Shown here piece after piece: positions 1 to 34,033 of a stretch of DNA of 34,033 nt; the stretch's first letter is position 1; each line of letters begins with the position of its first letter. The stretch is from IMG/VR virus record IMGVR_UViG_3300046520_000140, positions 1 to 34,033 of that record. One strand, written 5' to 3'. The stretch is from a virus. The notes beneath the pieces are model-generated. The model was not told the origin of the DNA. It was given only the letters and a program-made list of their open reading frames with translations, and searched no databases. The position numbers were made by a program, and so were the translations under genes.

Positions 1-674
1 GCTTCGCAGAGTTCGGTCATGCGGGTTTTCACCGGCGCGCCGTTCCAGAAACCGGTGCGGTATTTCACGTCAACGCCGTAGGCGCTGGTGTCTTGCGAAA
101 TGACCAGCAACTCTTTAACGCCGGATTTGACCAGACGCTGAGCTTCGTCCAACACATCACCGACCGGACGGCTGACCAGTTTGCCGCGCATCGACGGGAT
201 GATGCAGAAGGAGCAGCTGTGGTTGCAGCCTTCGGAAATCTTCAGGTAGGCGTAGTGGCGCGGGGTCAGCTTGATGCCTTGCGGCGGCACCAGGTCGATC
301 AGCGGGTTGTGATCCTGACGCGGCGGCACCACTTCGTGCACAGCGTTGACCACTTGCTCGTATTGCTGCGGACCGGTCACGGCCAGCACGCTCGGGTGCA
401 CGTTGCGGATGTTGCCTTCTTCCACGCCCATGCAACCGGTGACGATCACCTTGCCGTTTTCCTTGATCGCTTCGCCGATCACTTCCAGCGACTCAGCCTT
501 GGCCGAATCGATGAAACCGCAGGTGTTGACGACTACAACGTCGGCGTCCTGATAGGTGGACACCACGTCATAGCCTTCCATGCGCAGCTGGGTCAGGATG
601 CGCTCGGAGTCGACCAGTGCTTTCGGGCACCCTAACGATATCATTCCTACACGCGGGGCTTTTACTGTCATCAT
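1..674 (-). CDS. rimO: Ribosomal protein S12 methylthiotransferase RimO, 5' part, N-terminus supplied by prophage
   Basis: Partial gene running off the left edge. RimO is a radical-SAM enzyme that methylthiolates an aspartate of ribosomal protein S12. The minus strand reads a UPF0004 domain with cluster-binding cysteines (SLGCPKA, VVNTCGF, VTGCMG), then the radical-SAM motif CNHSCSFC. The first residues are [15 protein letters not shown], not the host form (MSTTPAPANPKVGF...), which now lies alone at 33735-33794. The switch is at the TGC codon of SLGCP, where the prophage joins. The phage part also brings a Shine-Dalgarno-like GAGGAT just upstream (minus strand). ATG at 674 or 671 are both possible. 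The gene is therefore a host-phage hybrid that should still be functional, but it must be transcribed from a promoter inside the integrase end of the prophage. Confidence 0.95.
612..650. other. attL (core GGGCA at 625-629)
   Basis: Host rimO codons (reading leftward CCC GAA AGC ACT GGT) meet phage DNA at the core. The phage arm CCCTAACGATATC follows the CA dinucleotide at 628-629. Joining the phage arms of attL and attR gives TTAGGGCACCCTAA, two perfect 6-bp inverted arms around CA, as expected for an attP cut by a serine integrase at a 2-bp centre. The exact crossover within GGGCA cannot be fixed from sequence alone. Confidence 0.85.
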
Positions 675-704
675 AGGATGATCCTCATCAGGGTCTTTTT
701 TCTA

Positions 705-2324
705 ATGGCTAAAAACGGTGCGCGAGTATACAGCTATTTGCGCTTCTCAGACCCTCGACAGTCCACCGGTGGTAGCGCCGATCGTCAGTTGCAGTACGCC
801 CAGAAGTGGGCTGCTGAAAAAGGCCTGGTGCTCGACGATTCGCTATCCATGCGTGACGAAGGTCTATCCGCATATCACCAACGCCACATTACCCAGGGAG
901 CCCTCGGGGTTTTCCTGGTGGCGATCGAGGAAGGGCGAATCGCGTCCGGCTCAGTCCTGGTCGTGGAAGGACTGGATCGTTTGAGCCGTGCTGAGCCGAT
1001 CCAGGCTCAAGCCCAACTTGCGCAAATTATCAATGCCGGCATAACCGTTGTGACCGCCAGTGACGGCCGGGAGTACAACCGCGCCGGGTTGAAGGCCCAG
1101 CCGATGGACCTTGTTTACTCGCTCCTGGTCATGATCCGCGCTCACGAAGAGTCGGATACTAAGAGCAAGCGAGTGAAGGCCTCGATCCGGCGACTATGCG
1201 AGGCTTGGCAGGCTGGCACCTATCGGGGGCAGATCCGCAACGGCAAAGATCCTCAGTGGCTCAAGTGGACTGGTACCGAATGGGAGTTTATTCCTGAGCG
1301 AGTTGCTACCGTACGTCGAGCTCTGCAACTGTATCTGGAGGGGATGGGGGCAGCTCGCGCAGTTCGTATCTTGCACGACGAGGGGCTGAGTTACAGCGAC
1401 CTTGGAATTACCACTCTGCAGATCTACCGGATGATCAAGCTCAAGGCACTGCGAGGAGCCAAGAGCCTGACAGTTGAGGGTGAGGAGTTTGTCCTTGAGG
1501 ATTACTACCCACGGCTATTGTCGGAAACGGAATGGGCCGAGTTGCAGCACATGGGTGGCCAAAGATTACGGCGCAGGATGAAAGGCGAGATTCCAGGGAT
1601 TATCACTGGCATCGGCCTGACGTTCTGCGGCTATTGCGGTACCGCCGTTATTGGACAGAACTATATGAGCCGCGCCCGTGCTGACGGCACGCTCGCAGAC
1701 GGCCATCGCCGCTTGCATTGTGTGTCATACAGCCGAAACGACGGCTGCGGCTCCGGTGGTTCGTGCAGCGTGGTCCCGATTGAGAAAGCATTGCTGAACT
1801 TCTGCTCTGACCGCCTCAACCTGCAGCGATTGATGCAGCTTGGTGACGATGGTCAAGGCCTTCGCCATCAACTGGTGGGTGCGCGGGCTGCGGTACAAAA
1901 AATTTCGGACCAACTCGAAAAAGTCACCGCAGCTCTGCTTGCAGATGATGACGGCCCCGCGCCGGTTTCTTTCGTGCGTAAAGCTCGCGAGCTGGAGGCG
2001 CAGCAGCTTGATGCAGAAAGGAATGTGGCGAGCATTGAATACGAACTAGCGGTAGCGGCTGGTTCTGGCAAGCCAGCGCAGCATGAGCAATGGACAGAAC
2101 TGGCTGCCCTCGTCGCTGTGGGTGACTACGCAGCCAGGGAAAAGGTGCGCCAGTTGGTCATGGATACCTTCCAGCGGATCGTGGTTTATATGCGAGGGAT
2201 GGGCGACGAGGATCGCAAGAGCAAGTTTATTGATGTGCAGCTGCTTTCCCGTACCGGTCAGCACAGGCTCTTGCAGATCAGCCGGAAGACGGGTGAGTGG
2301 GTCGCCAGCGAAGACTGGGACTGA
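705..2324 (+). CDS. int: Large serine recombinase (phage integrase)
   Basis: Site-specific recombinase that joins attP and attB through a phosphoserine link. The 539-residue protein starts with a resolvase-type domain; YLRFS gives catalytic Ser15, followed by DRQ and by VLVVEGLDRLSR and the ESDTKSKRVKASI helix. A recombinase domain follows, then a zinc ribbon near residues 305-350 (CGYCG ... HC ... GCG), a coiled-coil stretch around 395-455 and a C-terminal tail. I chose ATG 705; an in-frame ATG at 678 has no room for a ribosome site. The start lies about 30 bp from the rimO start on the other strand. P2 and HP1 use tyrosine integrases, so this module is foreign to the virion genes. Confidence 0.93.
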   Translation: MAKNGARVYSYLRFSDPRQSTGGSADRQLQYAQKWAAEKGLVLDDSLSMRDEGLSAYHQRHITQGALGVFLVAIEEGRIASGSVLVVEGLDRLSRAEPIQAQAQLAQIINAGITVVTASDGREYNRAGLKAQPMDLVYSLLVMIRAHEESDTKSKRVKASIRRLCEAWQAGTYRGQIRNGKDPQWLKWTGTEWEFIPERVATVRRALQLYLEGMGAARAVRILHDEGLSYSDLGITTLQIYRMIKLKALRGAKSLTVEGEEFVLEDYYPRLLSETEWAELQHMGGQRLRRRMKGEIPGIITGIGLTFCGYCGTAVIGQNYMSRARADGTLADGHRRLHCVSYSRNDGCGSGGSCSVVPIEKALLNFCSDRLNLQRLMQLGDDGQGLRHQLVGARAAVQKISDQLEKVTAALLADDDGPAPVSFVRKARELEAQQLDAERNVASIEYELAVAAGSGKPAQHEQWTELAALVAVGDYAAREKVRQLVMDTFQRIVVYMRGMGDEDRKSKFIDVQLLSRTGQHRLLQISRKTGEWVASEDWD

Positions 2325-2389: not shown

Positions 2390-2647
2390 ATGTCCCACAG
2401 CGTCCATCCCGGTGATCTTGAGCTATCGCATACCCCATTCGAACAGCTTTCCCGCCGCATTCATCGGCAGGTCAATAGCTCGGCCGCGCAGACGCGAAGA
2501 CGGACAATCATTGCGAAACTAGCAAGTGAAAAGCTTGATGACTGGGAGTGCTTGCTTGACCAACTGGACGTTGAGGACTGCGTGCGGGTTACACGTTTGG
2601 AATGTGGGGCTGTTGGTCTGACGTGGACGAATCAGCATTTGGGTTGA
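2390..2647 (+). CDS. Small DUF1654-like protein, SOS-controlled
   Basis: An 85-residue basic, soluble protein. The start is ATG 2390, preceded by AAGGAG; a longer upstream frame overlaps the integrase and is not needed. The middle (SRRIHRQVNSSAAQ ... WECLLDQLDVEDCVRV) resembles DUF1654, a small family common in Pseudomonas; this is recognition from memory, not a search. A LexA box lies directly upstream, so it should be expressed after DNA damage together with prophage induction. Its job is unknown; an accessory DNA-repair role or a directionality factor for the serine integrase are possibilities by position only. Confidence 0.7.
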   Translation: MSHSVHPGDLELSHTPFEQLSRRIHRQVNSSAAQTRRRTIIAKLASEKLDDWECLLDQLDVEDCVRVTRLECGAVGLTWTNQHLG

Positions 2648-2657
2648 ACGAAAACGC

Positions 2658-2710
2658 ATACCTCAGTTTTATATACCTGAGGTATTGATTTAAAAAGATA
2701 CCTGCGGTTA
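2658..2710. promoter_or_regulatory. Left operator cluster and early promoter
   Basis: Three copies of the phage operator: ATACCTCAGTTTT (2658-2670, imperfect), ATACCTGAGGTAT (2673-2685, perfect dyad) and ATACCTGCGGTTA (2698-2710). A possible promoter has TTGATT (2685-2690), an 18-bp spacer and TAATCT (2709-2714), with its -10 overlapping the last operator. The cro-side promoter has the same arrangement. CI and Cro are therefore expected to repress the 2772-3840 operon as well. Confidence 0.75.
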
Positions 2711-2771
2711 ATCTATGTCCGTCAATTCAGGAACCCAAAGTGGTGGCCTGATTTCAACGGAGGTCAACCGC

Positions 2772-3311
2772 ATGATTCGCCCTACCTTTAGCCTTTCATT
2801 TGAAGCCAGAGCGCAGCTGGCAGAGCACGTCAAACAGAACGGCGTGTTCCCCCTTCCTCTCGTCTGCAACTACGCACCGAGTTTTCTCCTAGCCAATTTG
2901 ACGATAGAGCAATGTGGTTCCGACGTTGCTGTGCAGGTCCGGTTGGGTGAGACGGTAAACACGTTTACCCTCGGCCTTCAGGGCGATACGGCTCATAGGG
3001 TCGAGCAGTTCGTAGAAGAGCTGGCCAACGTGCATTACGAACGTATGGCCCAGCCTATCCTCGATCGGGATCTGGAGTTCTTGTTGCGCAATGCTGCAAC
3101 AAGCCGCCGTGGACTCTATCTGTTGCCGCAGTCGGGAATGCATGACCTGAGGTTGCTACTGACAGCAGCCGCTGAGAATCCAGAACAGACGTATTTCAGA
3201 TTTTTATTGGGTGGTGCCGGTATTTCGGCTCCGGCGCTGATGCCGGCAGATCCTGATAAAGCCTACGACCTGCTCTCCAATTTCGTCCGCGAAATCAAGG
3301 AGTGGCAATGA
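2772..3311 (+). CDS. Hypothetical early phage protein
   Basis: First gene of a repressor-controlled operon. ATG 2772 is preferred because GGAGG stands 7-10 bases before it; an in-frame ATG at 2715 lies against the operator and lacks a ribosome site. The 179-residue product (MIRPTFSLSFEARAQL...) has no signal peptide or membrane segment and no motif I recognise. It has moderate GC and an acidic C-terminus (NFVREIKEWQ). Its stop overlaps the next start. Position opposite cI and behind operators suggests an early lytic function (recombination, anti-repression or excision), but nothing in the sequence proves it. Confidence 0.7.
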   Translation: MIRPTFSLSFEARAQLAEHVKQNGVFPLPLVCNYAPSFLLANLTIEQCGSDVAVQVRLGETVNTFTLGLQGDTAHRVEQFVEELANVHYERMAQPILDRDLEFLLRNAATSRRGLYLLPQSGMHDLRLLLTAAAENPEQTYFRFLLGGAGISAPALMPADPDKAYDLLSNFVREIKEWQ

Positions 3312-3544
3312 CCAACTCTCAGCTCCTATTGATATTGGCCGGCTTTTCAGAGCAAGACAGGCAGATCCTTTCGCATAGCGTGTCGGGTTGGAGAAGCGCG
3401 AACTTGGGTATCGATTCTGCTATCCAATCCGAGAATTGGCCGGCTATCGACAGCGCCCAGATCGATCGGGCATCGCACGCAAATACCATCGCGTTGATCG
3501 TAAACAAGTACACGGACCAAACTGAACAAGGAACACGGCCATGA
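3308..3544 (+). CDS. Small hypothetical phage protein
   Basis: A 78-residue protein starting at ATG 3308 behind AAGGAGT and overlapping the previous stop (ATGA). An in-frame GTG two codons earlier is less likely. It looks soluble, with no recognised domain. It is coupled on both sides: its own stop overlaps the next ATG at 3541. Because large serine integrases need a small phage-coded directionality factor and none is recognisable, this and its neighbours are candidates by size and place only. Confidence 0.65.
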   Translation: MTNSQLLLILAGFSEQDRQILSHSVSGWRSANLGIDSAIQSENWPAIDSAQIDRASHANTIALIVNKYTDQTEQGTRP

Positions 3545-3840
3545 TCGGTATCCCGGAGACAGGAACCTTGGAAAATGGCCGTATCGCTGCCAACGTCACC
3601 AGCGGTTACAAGTTCACCACAGCGGATGGCCGGCCTGCGCGCCTGGCGATCATCGATGACCAGGGCAACGTGGTTGAATCTGGCGAAGCGGTGGCGCGTG
3701 AGGCGTGGAACGTGTGCATCGCGGTGATCAAGAACTTCAAGATCGGGCAGGGCCATATCGTGGTCCATAGCGCACCACCAGGTCTAGCCATACAGAATAC
3801 ACCTGAGCCGCGTAAACGTGCCCAGCAGGTGCCATCATGA
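3541..3840 (+). CDS. Small hypothetical phage protein
   Basis: A 99-residue protein, last of the 2772-3840 operon, starting in an ATGA overlap with the gene before. The sequence (GRIAANVTSGYKFTTADGRP, then AIIDDQGNVVESGEAVAREAW) looks like a small beta-rich soluble domain; I do not recognise the family. It ends 38 bp from the convergent end of the CI-linked gene at 3879, with no obvious terminator between them, so antisense overlap of the two transcripts is likely. Confidence 0.6.
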   Translation: MIGIPETGTLENGRIAANVTSGYKFTTADGRPARLAIIDDQGNVVESGEAVAREAWNVCIAVIKNFKIGQGHIVVHSAPPGLAIQNTPEPRKRAQQVPS

Positions 3841-3878
3841 AAACATTGATTCAGAAGCCGCGCAGCATCGGGGCTACT

Positions 3879-4430
3879 TCACTCGTAGCGGCGAATAAGC
3901 CGATGTTGAAGCTGCATCACTTCCTTTTCTACCTTCCGGTAATCCCGCAGGACACGGGGTGGAAGGGCGAGTTCTCCATGTTGATCGGCCAAGTCGCCCT
4001 TGTTGAGTATCTCGAAGCGCCTTGTTGCGAGGTGCAGAAAGCGAATTACGTCCAGATCATCCACCAGCGGGCGACGGATGTTATCGACCTGTCTGCCGCG
4101 ATATTCTCGGCGAGGGTCGGGCAGAAAGAGGATGGTCTCGAATTGGTAGCGACGAGGAGTCAGGTCAATGAGGTTCCCTTGTGGATCTTGCCAGACAGTG
4201 TGGAACTCGGCCTCGATGTACAGACCGGAAGTCTCCCAGATCGCCCAGCCTATCAGCTGTTTTCCACCCTCAGCGACGACTTGCTCTGGAACGATGCTGA
4301 AACATTCGTTCTGTGGCTTGCCAACCAGCGGTTTATACGGGATGACAATGGGGACCTGATCTTGAGCTACGTACCGGCAGAAATCCTCCACATAAGCTAA
4401 TGCTGGATTACCTGGTTGCGTTATGAACAT
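3879..4430 (-). CDS. Conserved hypothetical protein co-transcribed with CI (lysogenic gene)
   Basis: A 183-residue soluble protein with a good ribosome site (AAGGA, 7 bases before ATG 4430) in the 23-bp gap after the cI stop, so it should be expressed with the repressor in the lysogen. The core reads NECFSIVPEQVV, GGKQLIGWAIWE, IEAEFHTVWQD, GNLIDLTP, a pattern I associate with uncharacterised proteins; the Cys and the EFH residues could bind metal or act in catalysis, which is inference. A 187-codon frame lies antisense in the same triplet phase and base composition does not separate them; the conserved-looking motif and ribosome site favour the minus strand. Genes placed like rexAB of lambda often act in exclusion or host fitness. 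Confidence 0.72.
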   Translation of the reverse strand: MFITQPGNPALAYVEDFCRYVAQDQVPIVIPYKPLVGKPQNECFSIVPEQVVAEGGKQLIGWAIWETSGLYIEAEFHTVWQDPQGNLIDLTPRRYQFETILFLPDPRREYRGRQVDNIRRPLVDDLDVIRFLHLATRRFEILNKGDLADQHGELALPPRVLRDYRKVEKEVMQLQHRLIRRYE

Positions 4431-4453
4431 GATTTTTCCTTGGTTGGCACTGG

Positions 4454-5173
4454 CTACATTCCGGTGATTTTGGCGTCGATCGCCCGGCCGATGATTTCCC
4501 AGTTGCCGTCCAGTACAACCGGTTGATAGCTGGGATTGAGCGGCACCAGGTAACCGACACCCGCATCCATCGTGTACTGCTTGAATGTCGTCTCTCCACT
4601 GACAGTGTTTCGAGCAACATAAAATTTCCCGCTGATGACATCAAAGCCCTCAGGACGGATCAGGATGGGTGTGCCTTCTGGAAAAGTAGGGTGGCTGTCA
4701 GAGGTCATCGATTTGCCCTTGACCCTCAACCAATAGCCCTTTGGACCAGCATTTTCCGTAGAGCTAAGCCACTCGTCAGAGATGCCCGACGGGTAACTGG
4801 CTAACGACTCGATCCCTTGGCCAGCGTCTACCCAAGTTATTAGCGGATATTCCCTGCCGTCTCTATATGGCTGCAGCATTGGGCTGACATTGGCATGCCC
4901 AGTGGTTGCCGCAAGCCCCGAAATTTCCGCAGCGAGACGCGGGCTGAACTTTTCAACTGGCTCGCCCAAAAGCTTTGCCAAGGCGGACGCAAACTTGATG
5001 TTCAGTGCGTTGATGCCGTTCAGGTAGTGAGCCACTGCAGCAGGACTCACGCCGATTTCATCGGCAATCTTTCGCTTGTTTAAGTTGAGTTCTTTTTTCT
5101 TCGAGAGGTAGAGCTCGTTGGCAGCTTTGCACTCATCGAAAAGCTCGGGGGGAAGGGGTGGCTTCTTATTCAT
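4454..5173 (-). CDS. cI: Lambda CI-like repressor, RecA-cleavable
   Basis: Maintains lysogeny by binding the operators next to it. The 239-residue protein matches lambda CI along its length. An N-terminal helix-turn-helix (KRKIADEIGVSPAAVAHYL, then GINALN as in lambda) is followed by a LexA/S24 peptidase domain. Cleavage site Ala117-Gly118, Ser155 (GKSM) and Lys198 (TTFKQ) keep the same spacings as lambda A111/S149/K192, so SOS-induced self-cleavage should work. The start at 5173 has no clear ribosome site; lambda cI from PRM is leaderless, so this may be too. It is divergent from cro and followed closely by the gene at 4430. Confidence 0.95.
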   Translation of the reverse strand: MNKKPPLPPELFDECKAANELYLSKKKELNLNKRKIADEIGVSPAAVAHYLNGINALNIKFASALAKLLGEPVEKFSPRLAAEISGLAATTGHANVSPMLQPYRDGREYPLITWVDAGQGIESLASYPSGISDEWLSSTENAGPKGYWLRVKGKSMTSDSHPTFPEGTPILIRPEGFDVISGKFYVARNTVSGETTFKQYTMDAGVGYLVPLNPSYQPVVLDGNWEIIGRAIDAKITGM

Positions 5174-5185
5174 GGGGGCAATGAT

Positions 5186-5326
5186 AAACCGGAGGTAAAT
5201 TAAAATAATTTACCTGCGGCATCGTTAGTGACCGTTCGTAAAATACCCGAGGTTTCTTATTACGGAGTCCATAAAAATACCCAAGGTATCTTTTCTGTTG
5301 TGGTCGACGATACCTCAGGTTAATAT
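5186..5326. promoter_or_regulatory. Right operator region between cI and cro
   Basis: Five operator copies of the form ATACC-N3-GGTAT: 5186-5198 (AAACC GGA GGTAA), 5210-5222 (TTACC TGC GGCAT), 5243-5255 (ATACC CGA GGTTT), 5277-5289 (ATACC CAA GGTAT) and 5310-5322 (ATACC TCA GGTTA). The first two are joined by a perfect dyad (arms GGTAAATTA and TAATTTACC, 5194-5214). A cro promoter fits TTGTGG (5298-5303), 17 bp, TAATAT (5321-5326), its -10 overlapping the last operator. The repeat family is direct observation; CI/Cro binding is inferred from position. Confidence 0.85.
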
Positions 5327-5354
5327 TGTGGCGTCTACCCAGAGATGCCCTGTT

Positions 5355-5612
5355 ATGAATCAAATCTCATTGTCTGAATTAGCCGCCAAAATTGGTCAGG
5401 CAGCGGTTGCGGAAGCCTTCGGGGTCACTCCCGCTGCCGTACATAAGGCAATCAGGTTGGGTCGGAAAATCATCGTGTCTGTGCACGCTGATGGCTCCTA
5501 CACAGCTGAAGAACTGCGCCCATTTCCATCAAACAAAGTCCTTCCTACGCCCCAGTTAGGGGGCGGGGCCGCTGGTGGTGATTCGCAGGTTATTGGGCAG
5601 AAGCTCGTATGA
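5355..5612 (+). CDS. cro: Lambda Cro-like repressor
   Basis: An 85-residue DNA-binding protein expected to compete with CI at the operators and start the lytic programme. Residues 1-61 follow lambda Cro: IGQAAVAEAFGVTPAAVHKAI is the helix-turn-helix, then GRKIIVSVHADGSYTAEEL and RPFPSNK, nearly as in lambda (GRKIFLTINADGS ... KPFPSNK). A Gly/Gln-rich tail of about 24 residues is extra. ATG 5355 was chosen because the homology begins there; an upstream in-frame ATG at 5298 lies inside the operators. The stop overlaps the next start. Confidence 0.9.
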   Translation: MNQISLSELAAKIGQAAVAEAFGVTPAAVHKAIRLGRKIIVSVHADGSYTAEELRPFPSNKVLPTPQLGGGAAGGDSQVIGQKLV

Positions 5613-6241
5613 ACACGTCCAATCCAGGACAGACGTCCACGTCTCGTGACCAGGTGTTGGTGGCGCATGCCGTTGAGATGATCGCGCGCACCGGTTTCAG
5701 CCAGGACGACTTTGCCCAGGCATTAAGCAGCAGCCTGCATCGCATCGTTCCAGACAAGGCCGTAAGCAAGGACGTGCCCGATTTCGACGAGTTGGCCAAG
5801 GGCAACGACGCGCCGGCGTTTCTGAGAGCATCAGGCGCTTGGTTACGTCGCGTTGGCCGCTGGCTCAATGGTGAGGTAGATCTGCCGTGCTGGCTGGAAG
5901 AGGCGTGGGTAGAAGCTCTCGAAGGCGACTTCAAAGACGATTGCATCAACGAGCTTGCCAGTCGTCACGGTCTGACTGGCGCGCGCGAGCTGGAAGGTGA
6001 CGGCAATCCGCTGTGTGCGTTCGGCCTACTCGTGGCCAGGCTGGGCGATACAGTTGCCCTGGGCAGCGAGATCCTTGCAGACGGTCATATCGATCTCCAG
6101 GACATCGACAAACTGCCTAGCTTCGTCGATCGGCTCCGGTCAGTCGAAGCGCGGTGCTGCGAACTTCGCTCACGTGCCGAAGACGTGCTGCTCGAGCAGC
6201 ACCAGAAACCTATCCTGCAACAGGTGAATACCCGCCTGTGA
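5609..6241 (+). CDS. Hypothetical phage protein coupled to cro
   Basis: A 210-residue acidic soluble protein starting in an ATGA overlap with cro and ending in a GTGA overlap with the replication gene, so it is part of the early rightward operon. The first part (HAVEMIARTGFSQDDFAQALSSSL) could form a helical DNA-binding domain, and the middle contains WLNGEVDLPCWLEEAWVEAL, which I recall from uncharacterised Pseudomonas phage proteins in the same place. Lambda has cII here and enterobacterial prophages YdaS/YdaT; no clear match to either is visible. A regulatory or replication-accessory role is inferred from position. Confidence 0.65.
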   Translation: MNTSNPGQTSTSRDQVLVAHAVEMIARTGFSQDDFAQALSSSLHRIVPDKAVSKDVPDFDELAKGNDAPAFLRASGAWLRRVGRWLNGEVDLPCWLEEAWVEALEGDFKDDCINELASRHGLTGARELEGDGNPLCAFGLLVARLGDTVALGSEILADGHIDLQDIDKLPSFVDRLRSVEARCCELRSRAEDVLLEQHQKPILQQVNTRL

Positions 6242-33592: not shown

Positions 33593-33721
33593 TTGGAATC
33601 CCGTCGCGCAAACGTCGAACAGGGCGGGAAAATGGCAGTGTTAAAAATGATGTTTCGGGTGGGGGGGAGGAGTTGAGGTCATCAACCTAGGGCCCGAGAA
33701 CGCCAGACGGAATTTGTATAT
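33593..33721. other. Right-end phage intergenic sequence
   Basis: About 130 bp between the DUF4238 stop and attR. No gene is seen. In the circular phage this sequence would stand directly upstream of the integrase, so it may carry part of the integrase promoter; TTGACC (33724-33729) just before attR would be a good -35 element. Confidence 0.4.
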
Positions 33722-33794
33722 TTTGACCGTCATTAGGGCAACCCAGAGATACAAAGCCAACCTTTGGATTGGCCGGCGCAGGAGTGGTGGACAT
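33687..33794 (-). pseudogene. rimO: Orphan native 5' end of rimO fused to phage DNA
   Basis: The minus strand reads from ATG 33794 the native RimO start (MSTTPAPANPKVGFV, then SLGCP), with ribosome site GAGGTT six bases before ATG. At the att core it runs into phage sequence (NDGQNIQIPSGVLGP) and stops at 33687-33689. The 35-codon frame is the detached start of the interrupted gene, still under the native rimO promoter. Its product would be a short dead-end peptide. Confidence 0.9.
33722..33760. other. attR (core GGGCA at 33736-33740)
   Basis: The phage arm TTTTGACCGTCATTA joins the core GGGCA and then host sequence ACCCAGAGATACAAAGCC, which on the minus strand is the native rimO start region (KVGFVSLG). 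Host arms from attL and attR rebuild an attB reading CTTTCGGGCAACCCAGAG inside rimO. Only five bases are shared by attB and attP, typical for large serine integrases and unlike the long identity blocks of tyrosine integrases. Confidence 0.85.
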
Positions 33795-34033
33795 GTCTAA
33801 CCTCGGTATTTTGTGACATCGCTTTCTTGGTGCGAAAGCCGACGGACGGGCGCTTAGGGCGCGCCTCTGATCAAAAAGTGCGCAATTCTAGCGGCGGGCA
33901 ACGCACTTGACCAGCTTTATGCAGGGAAATACGACGAGTGCTGCGCTATGCTTCGCGCCGTTGAGCTTTACCAATTTTTTACAGTCAACAAAACGTCTGT
34001 AACAACAGGTAAAACAGCGCATGCTGCACCACA
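33795..34033. other. Host DNA upstream of rimO
   Basis: Remaining host flank, holding the native rimO promoter region on the minus strand. No complete gene or RNA is recognised before the window ends. Confidence 0.6.

What the first reader, a model, noticed from the sequence alone, without database searches (positions are those of the whole stretch)
3879..4430. Uncharacterised lysogenic gene co-transcribed with cI
It has a strong ribosome site 23 bp after cI and a coherent motif set (GWAIWE, IEAEFHTVW, NLIDLTP) with a Cys and a His that could be functional. In lambda-like phages this slot holds lysogen-expressed genes such as rexAB or other exclusion factors. It also overlaps antisense a 187-codon open frame in the same phase.
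Basis: partly seen in the sequence, partly recalled or inferred. Interest (0 to 1): 0.6.

Follow-up and report, generated by a model that had tools for sequence, protein, structure and literature searches.

The report
Prophage cargo gene beside the repressor
A dormant Pseudomonas virus carries, right behind its repressor gene, a real but uncharacterised gene from a widespread protein family, in a spot where related viruses swap cargo genes that often defend the host; what it does is still unproven.

Summary
The minus-strand gene at 3879-4430 is real. It is a 183-aa member of a family with no Pfam or NCBIfam model (PHROG 37148, E 5e-33, unknown function). I collected 123 members from prophages, bacteria and one archaeal MAG. 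Codon-position divergence shows that the minus strand is the coding one; the 187-codon antisense frame is a chance by-product. The gene starts 23 nt after cI, and a simple scan finds no terminator between them. The slot behind cI is variable cargo: of 34 cI-homologue loci only 2 carry this gene, and others hold BRCT, DUF3800 or unknown genes, or appear empty. It lies between cI and integrase in a P2-related phage, the position Rousset et al. 2022 report as an anti-phage hotspot in Vibrionaceae. In another phage it follows a PADLOC defence candidate (PDC-M25A/B); elsewhere it sits beside CBASS, TIR and reverse-transcriptase genes. AlphaFold (pLDDT 94) puts near-invariant Cys43 at a helix start, with His77 and Asp89 on the following strands, an order like papain or transglutaminase. 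No solved structure or profile match confirms that fold. Best reading: lysogen-expressed cargo, probably a compact cysteine-hydrolase-like exclusion or defence factor. Cargo status is well supported; defence and catalysis are inferred.

The parts
3879..4430 (-). The gene: 183 aa, PHROG 37148 family. Core with Cys43, Glu73, Glu75, His77, Asp89, then a C-terminal helical tail in place of the SEC-C zinc motif of many relatives
4431..4453 (-). 23-nt gap after cI, with AAGGA ribosome-binding sequence
   Evidence: no terminator-like site in 2550-5700
4454..5173 (-). cI repressor, HTH_3 plus Peptidase_S24 (SOS-cleavable type)
5186..5322 (.). cI/cro intergenic region with five imperfect ATACCTSAGGTAT-like sites (putative operators)
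678..2324 (+). Serine integrase, the other border of the cI-int cargo interval
3837..4400 (+). 187-codon antisense frame; judged a chance open frame, not a gene

Best explanation
The gene is accessory cargo of a P2-related Pseudomonas prophage, carried in the variable interval between cI and integrase and read from the cI transcript, so it is made in the lysogen. It encodes a small, apparently soluble protein whose conserved Cys43, His77 and Asp89 (with Glu73) most likely form a thiol-hydrolase-type active site on a papain/transglutaminase-like helix-plus-sheet core. Its likely role is to protect the lysogen against other phages by cutting or modifying a protein or peptide target during infection. 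Shown: a real conserved gene, same strand and 23 nt from cI, a variable slot, conservation of the residues. Inferred: transcription with cI, the fold class, catalysis, the target and the anti-phage role.
For: Minus-strand coding: differences from homologue L014 by sense codon position are 64/42/91, L013 59/32/92, L018 63/41/77, L017 76/47/126. Same-strand repressor-like ORF within 0.5 kb upstream in 12 of 43 viral loci, some of them near-duplicates, and 1.6-2.0 kb upstream in two more. Slot turnover: of 34 cI-homologue loci, the gene is in 2, while two cI genes 85% identical to this one are followed by a BRCT protein. The cI-int interval is a published anti-phage hotspot in Vibrionaceae P2-related phages (PMC9122126, section 12 read). 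In L014 the gene directly follows PDC-M25A (2e-140) and PDC-M25B (4.6e-81). Relatives lie beside a CBASS cyclase-TRIP13-NucC cluster (L112), a TIR protein PDC-S35 (L101) and RT_II-A (L086). Active site: Cys43 in 118 of 123 members (4 Ser, 1 gap), Asp89 in 118 of 123 (3 Glu, 1 Cys, 1 gap), although neither was in the search pattern. The model starts a helix exactly at Cys43, with His77 in strand 71-81 and Asp89 in strand 87-89 (pLDDT 93.6). A P. aeruginosa plasmid relative has lost Cys, Glu73, Glu75, His and Asp together (L007), as expected if they act as a unit. Foldseek links the model to a Vibrio phage phi50-12 protein (E 1.4e-3, prob 1.00) and to Erwinia phage S6 gp040 (prob 0.77). In that family the invariant residues include C38, H68, G76, D80 and T82, and hhalign sets C on C, H on H, D on D.
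Against: No significant Foldseek hit in PDB for the whole model or the core. VIA-align ranks glyoxalases (Z 3.0-3.8) above the two staphopains (Z 2.4 and 2.2). hhalign gives no support for Transglut_core or NLPC_P60, while glyoxalase scores slightly higher than both. The score against the gp040 family is itself weak: probability 1.8%, and 1 of 40 column shuffles reaches it. Four members have Ser for Cys43. His77 conservation is partly forced by the search pattern. Defence neighbours were picked by eye without an enrichment control. The family is not in PADLOC apart from hits I attribute to SEC-C. Some relatives sit beside ordinary genes.
Confidence: 0.45

Rival explanations
1. Partner of the lysogeny switch: the protein modulates the repressor or the SOS response instead of excluding other phages.
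For: Recurrent adjacency to repressors. Members also follow Y-family DNA polymerase genes in L004 and L035, and L004 has an HTH gene upstream (by eye).
Against: Close cI relatives do without it (2 of 34 loci carry it). It also occurs on plasmids and chromosomes without a detected repressor (3 of 80 genomic loci have one within 1.5 kb upstream).
Confidence: 0.15
2. Metal-binding or ribosome-associated protein: Glu73, Glu75, His77 and Asp89 bind a metal, and relatives are aimed by their SEC-C zinc motif; the Cys is structural.
For: 16 of 47 members scanned hit Pfam SEC-C, and 56 of 123 carry a tail motif of that type. Cys to Ser and Asp to Glu occur naturally. The best, though weak, structural matches are glyoxalases, which are metal enzymes.
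Against: Glu75 is Met or Gln in distant members that keep Cys, His and Asp (L266, L008). Cys sits at a helix start, which suggests more than a structural role. The window protein lacks SEC-C.
Confidence: 0.25
3. Generic host-fitness moron unrelated to phage exclusion.
For: Broad distribution in bacteria outside prophages. Neighbours such as copper resistance or AMP nucleosidase in some relatives.
Against: Location in a cI-int interval of the kind reported as an anti-phage hotspot, and several defence-gene neighbours.
Confidence: 0.25
4. The plus-strand 187-codon frame is the true gene, and the minus frame its shadow.
For: Its ATG overlaps the stop of the preceding plus-strand ORF as ATGA, continuing a chain of such overlaps.
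Against: Divergence is lowest at sense codon position 2 and highest at position 3; antisense amino-acid identity is lower in all 7 pairs compared (43 v 94 of 181 codons in L017); no Pfam, PHROG or NCBIfam hit.
Confidence: 0.02

Closest known systems
cI-integrase anti-phage hotspot of Vibrionaceae P2-related (K139-like) prophages, Rousset et al. 2022 (PMC9122126; passages and section 12 read)
   Same: P2-related phage; variable cargo between cI repressor and integrase; neighbours in related loci with defence domains
   Different: Pseudomonas phage with a serine integrase; this gene family is not named in the passages read; no activity tested
Repressor-linked lysogen genes such as lambda rexAB (recalled, no call)
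   Same: Same strand and immediately after the repressor, expected in the lysogen transcript
   Different: No sequence relation was tested; single gene; function unknown here
PHROG 37148
   Same: Match at E 5e-33 over residues 17-174
   Different: PHROG gives no function
Small phage family of Erwinia phage S6 gp040 / Vibrio phage phi50-12 VOWphi5012_053
   Same: Predicted-fold match and the same Cys, His, Gly, Asp, Thr order
   Different: About 135 aa, from phages where I saw no lysogeny link; profile score weak; function unknown
Transglutaminase-like / papain-like cysteine hydrolases
   Same: Cys at helix start, then His and Asp on successive strands
   Different: No PDB or profile match of any weight

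Membership tests
PHROG 37148 / the family collected here | Profile match over most of the protein | tested here: met
   E 5e-33, residues 17-174 of 183; 123 members gathered
PHROG 37148 / the family collected here | Near-invariant Cys43, His77, Asp89 | tested here: met
   Window has all three; 118, 123 and 118 of 123 members; His lies in the search pattern
SEC-C domain proteins | C-terminal CxC...C[HC] zinc motif | tested here: not met
   Window protein has no Pfam SEC-C hit; 16 of 47 relatives scanned do
Transglutaminase-like / papain-like fold | Cys-His-Asp in order, Cys at helix N-terminus | tested here: met
   AlphaFold secondary structure
Transglutaminase-like / papain-like fold | Fold match to solved members | tested here: inconclusive
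   Two staphopains at Z 2.4 (65 aligned, rmsd 2.8) and 2.2 (68 aligned, rmsd 3.5), below glyoxalases
Transglutaminase-like / papain-like fold | Profile relation to Transglut_core or NLPC_P60 | tested here: not met
   hhalign scores within the range of shuffled controls: 13 and 8 of 40 shuffles reach them
Transglutaminase-like / papain-like fold | Active-site geometry and catalysis | not testable with these tools
   No coordinates returned; needs structure and assay
Cargo of a cI-int anti-phage hotspot | Variable content between conserved cI and integrase | tested here: met
   Interval about 1.4 to 5.3 kb, different occupants
Cargo of a cI-int anti-phage hotspot | Demonstrated anti-phage activity | not testable with these tools
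   Needs plating assays
Known PADLOC defence system | Own PADLOC model match | tested here: not met
   0 families for the window protein; relatives hit mainly E2-type models, which I attribute to SEC-C

The most novel reading that the evidence does not exclude
An undescribed class of compact Cys-His-Asp hydrolases, spread over bacteria, an archaeal MAG, temperate phages and (as the gp040-like branch) lytic coliphages, that arms lysogens and defence islands by proteolysis or deamidation of phage or host proteins, with the lytic-phage branch using the same chemistry for the opposite side.
Probability: 0.2. Interest if true: 0.75.

Novelty: new member of a known kind. Interest (0 to 1): 0.42.

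Why it matters
It turns an anonymous prophage ORF into a testable candidate: a widespread family without a Pfam or NCBIfam model, with three residues to mutate, in a cI-int interval of the kind reported as an anti-phage hotspot in Vibrionaceae. If active, it would extend that hotspot to Pseudomonas P2-related phages and give a new exclusion mechanism.

Tried and rejected
Fold searches: Foldseek against PDB with the whole model and the core alone gave nothing at E 0.001. VIA-align on the whole model was filled by matches to the C-terminal helices; on the core, the best were glyoxalases at Z 3.8 or less. Sequence searches of this family against PDB chains found no convincing relative, nor did the gp040 family.

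Profile tests: hhalign of the core with Transglut_core (30 sequences), NLPC_P60 (19) and Glyoxalase (30) alignments gave probabilities of 0.3, 0.3 and 2.3%; 13, 8 and 0 of 40 column shuffles scored as high, so glyoxalase is the one that beats its shuffles, with 29 aligned columns. A first run took some rows from the wrong strand; one search replaces it.

Antisense gene: tested and rejected. Window against L012 is uninformative alone (2 synonymous, 0 non-synonymous differences in the gene), so more distant pairs carry the argument.

Defence enrichment: not claimed. Of 192 same-strand neighbour ORFs (156 after removing near-duplicates) I gave 107, chosen by eye, to Pfam and PADLOC, without a control set. 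One search then named ten hand-picked proteins; two of them (L120, L093) had no hit. One search scanned ten further slot or neighbour proteins and found only weak PADLOC matches.

Dropped rows: six members (L047, L049, L051 truncated; L117, L131, L133) were left out of the 83-row count, but all 123 were counted. Two N-terminally short members (L084, L090) were left out of A4. A3 holds the window and 30 of 43 viral loci; A5 holds the window and 46 of 123 members.

Literature: searches for SEC-C with defense and transglutaminase-like, SEC-C motif with phage defense, transglutaminase-like with phage defense and prophage, and PHROG 37148 or GWAIWE (hits in the listing looked unrelated) found no description of this family.

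Full report
What is there. The window is a 34-kb virus record, a P2-type Pseudomonas phage by its capsid and terminase relatives. On the minus strand, cI (4454-5173; HTH_3 plus Peptidase_S24) is followed after 23 nt by a 183-codon gene at 4430-3879 with AAGGA before its ATG. A simple scan of 2550-5700 finds no terminator-like site, consistent with co-transcription, which was not measured.

Is it a gene. Yes. PHROG 37148 matches at E 5e-33; Pfam and NCBIfam have nothing. Pattern-plus-tblastn scans gave 43 viral loci and 80 kept of 96 genomic loci, from Pseudomonadota, Bacteroidetes, Chloroflexi, Acidobacteria and others by their record titles, including one Nanoarchaeota MAG; 54 plasmid records also match. 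Divergence follows the sense codon: positions 1/2/3 differ 64/42/91 times against L014 and 76/47/126 against L017.

The antisense frame. It is real as an open frame, but of no weight. It needs the absence of TTA, CTA and TCA codons in the sense gene, which simulation gives in 12 to 36% of trials, and only 28 of 123 members keep it over 90% of the gene. Antisense amino-acid identity is below sense identity in all 7 pairs compared.

The slot. A cI-like ORF lies within 0.5 kb upstream on the same strand in 12 of 43 viral loci, and further upstream in L014 and L033; L029, L030 and L051 have one downstream. Only 3 of 80 genomic loci have one within 1.5 kb upstream, and those are Pseudomonas. A separate scan for cI relatives gave 34 loci. 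The gene follows cI in 2 of them, L218 and L225, which are the contigs of L012 and L013. L219 and L220, with cI 85% identical, have a 212-aa BRCT protein instead (L219 scanned, E 3.5e-5); L240 has DUF3800 (E 5.2e-17); L222 and L223 seem to have nothing, by inspection; L231 has no sequence left. Among 13 loci found by a gene beyond cro, 4 carry it (L252, L255, L260, L263). The cI-int distance in these relatives runs from about 1.4 kb to 5.3 kb; the longest, L016, contains IstB-like transposition genes. This is the behaviour of a cargo hotspot. Rousset et al. (PMC9122126; section 12 and passages read) report such an anti-phage hotspot between cI and integrase of a P2-related phage in Vibrionaceae. 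In P. aeruginosa phage Fc02 (PMC9936078, passages read) an accessory gene without assigned function lies downstream of the repressor in the lysogen transcript, and overlapping genes upstream of the repressor, one with exclusion activity, lie in the same transcribed region.

Company kept. In L014 the order is HTH repressor (118 aa), PDC-M25A ATPase, PDC-M25B, then this gene after 28 nt. In L112 it follows a CBASS cyclase, a TRIP13-like ATPase and a NucC-type nuclease; in L101 a TIR protein; in L086 an RT_II-A. These were hand-picked from neighbours and no control was run. Other members have ordinary neighbours, such as copper resistance genes or AMP nucleosidase. The family has no PADLOC model of its own.

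Structure and residues. AlphaFold2 with 31 sequences gives pLDDT 93.6, and the core with 81 gives 95.6. Helix 43-54 starts at Cys43; strands 57-67, 71-81 (His77) and 87-89 (Asp89) follow. Over 123 members Cys43 is kept in 118, Asp89 in 118, and Glu73, Ala74, Glu75, His77 and Trp80 in all 123, the last group partly because the search pattern contains them. Members found by tblastn alone (L008, L266) keep Cys43, His77 and Asp89 although Glu75 changes. The P. aeruginosa plasmid relative L007 has lost Cys, Glu73, Glu75, His and Asp together. L013, L015, L016 and L055 have Ser for Cys.

What fold. No solved structure matches at E 0.001, and VIA-align is uninformative. BFVD gives the best lead: a GIY-YIG-annotated phage protein (E 6.9e-7), the phi50-12 protein (1.4e-3) and Erwinia phage S6 gp040 (7.2e-2, prob 0.77). 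The last two belong to one tblastn family of 50 records in phages of enterobacteria and Vibrio. I aligned 10 of these; invariant residues include C38, H39, N41, H68, G76, D80 and T82. hhalign sets their C, H, G, D and T on those of this family, but with probability 1.8%, and 1 of 40 shuffles scores as high. I read this as a shared Cys-His-Asp core of papain/transglutaminase-like order, as inference; Transglut_core and NLPC_P60 profiles give no support.

Mechanism and verdict. Most likely the protein is made with cI in the lysogen and acts as a thiol-dependent hydrolase or similar enzyme that interferes with incoming phages. My confidence is about 0.95 for the gene and strand, 0.85 for cargo in a cI-int hotspot, 0.5 for a defence or exclusion role, and 0.45 for Cys-His-Asp catalysis. 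The interest is moderate: the setting is of a known kind, the family undescribed as far as the searches listed under Tried and rejected show.

Noticed in passing
window 3-674 (-) and about 33690-33803 (-): The left end encodes RimO from a phage-side start (PDB RimO 4jc0, E 2.7e-35). The right end carries a second rimO-like start ending at SLGCP. The serine-integrase prophage seems to sit in rimO and supply a new 5' end for it.
   Followed up: partly
window 2658-2710: A perfect ATACCTGAGGTAT palindrome and two imperfect copies lie in front of the plus-strand gene at 2715, like the sites between cI and cro (5186-5322); cI may also control this second operon.
   Followed up: partly
window 2715-3840 (+): Three uncharacterised ORFs (198, 79, 99 aa) are chained by ATGA stop-start overlaps and converge on the cI operon; the start of the antisense frame continues the chain.
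   Followed up: partly
L004 3472-4944 and 4956-5540; L035 5359-6654 and 6953-7582: Members of the family follow Y-family DNA polymerase genes in two loci, a possible SOS link.
   Followed up: partly
L265 12439-12849 and relatives L267-L276: A small uncharacterised CHxN...H...G...D.T family in 50 phage records of enterobacteria and Vibrio, including BASEL phages Bas77-79 and Bas81.
   Followed up: partly
L007 4956-5522: P. aeruginosa plasmid relative with SEC-C annotation that lost the putative active-site residues together: a likely pseudo-enzyme.
   Followed up: partly
L016 8964-10792: IS21-type IstA/IstB-like genes inserted in the cI-int interval (IstB: IS5376 ATP-binding protein, E 5.7e-59; IstA by eye).
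   Followed up: partly
L074-L081, L087, L094: In ten Xanthomonadaceae-type loci a coiled-coil DNA-binding gene (blastp cluster; KfrA_N appears once in the Pfam tally) lies 42-111 nt upstream of the family member.
   Followed up: no
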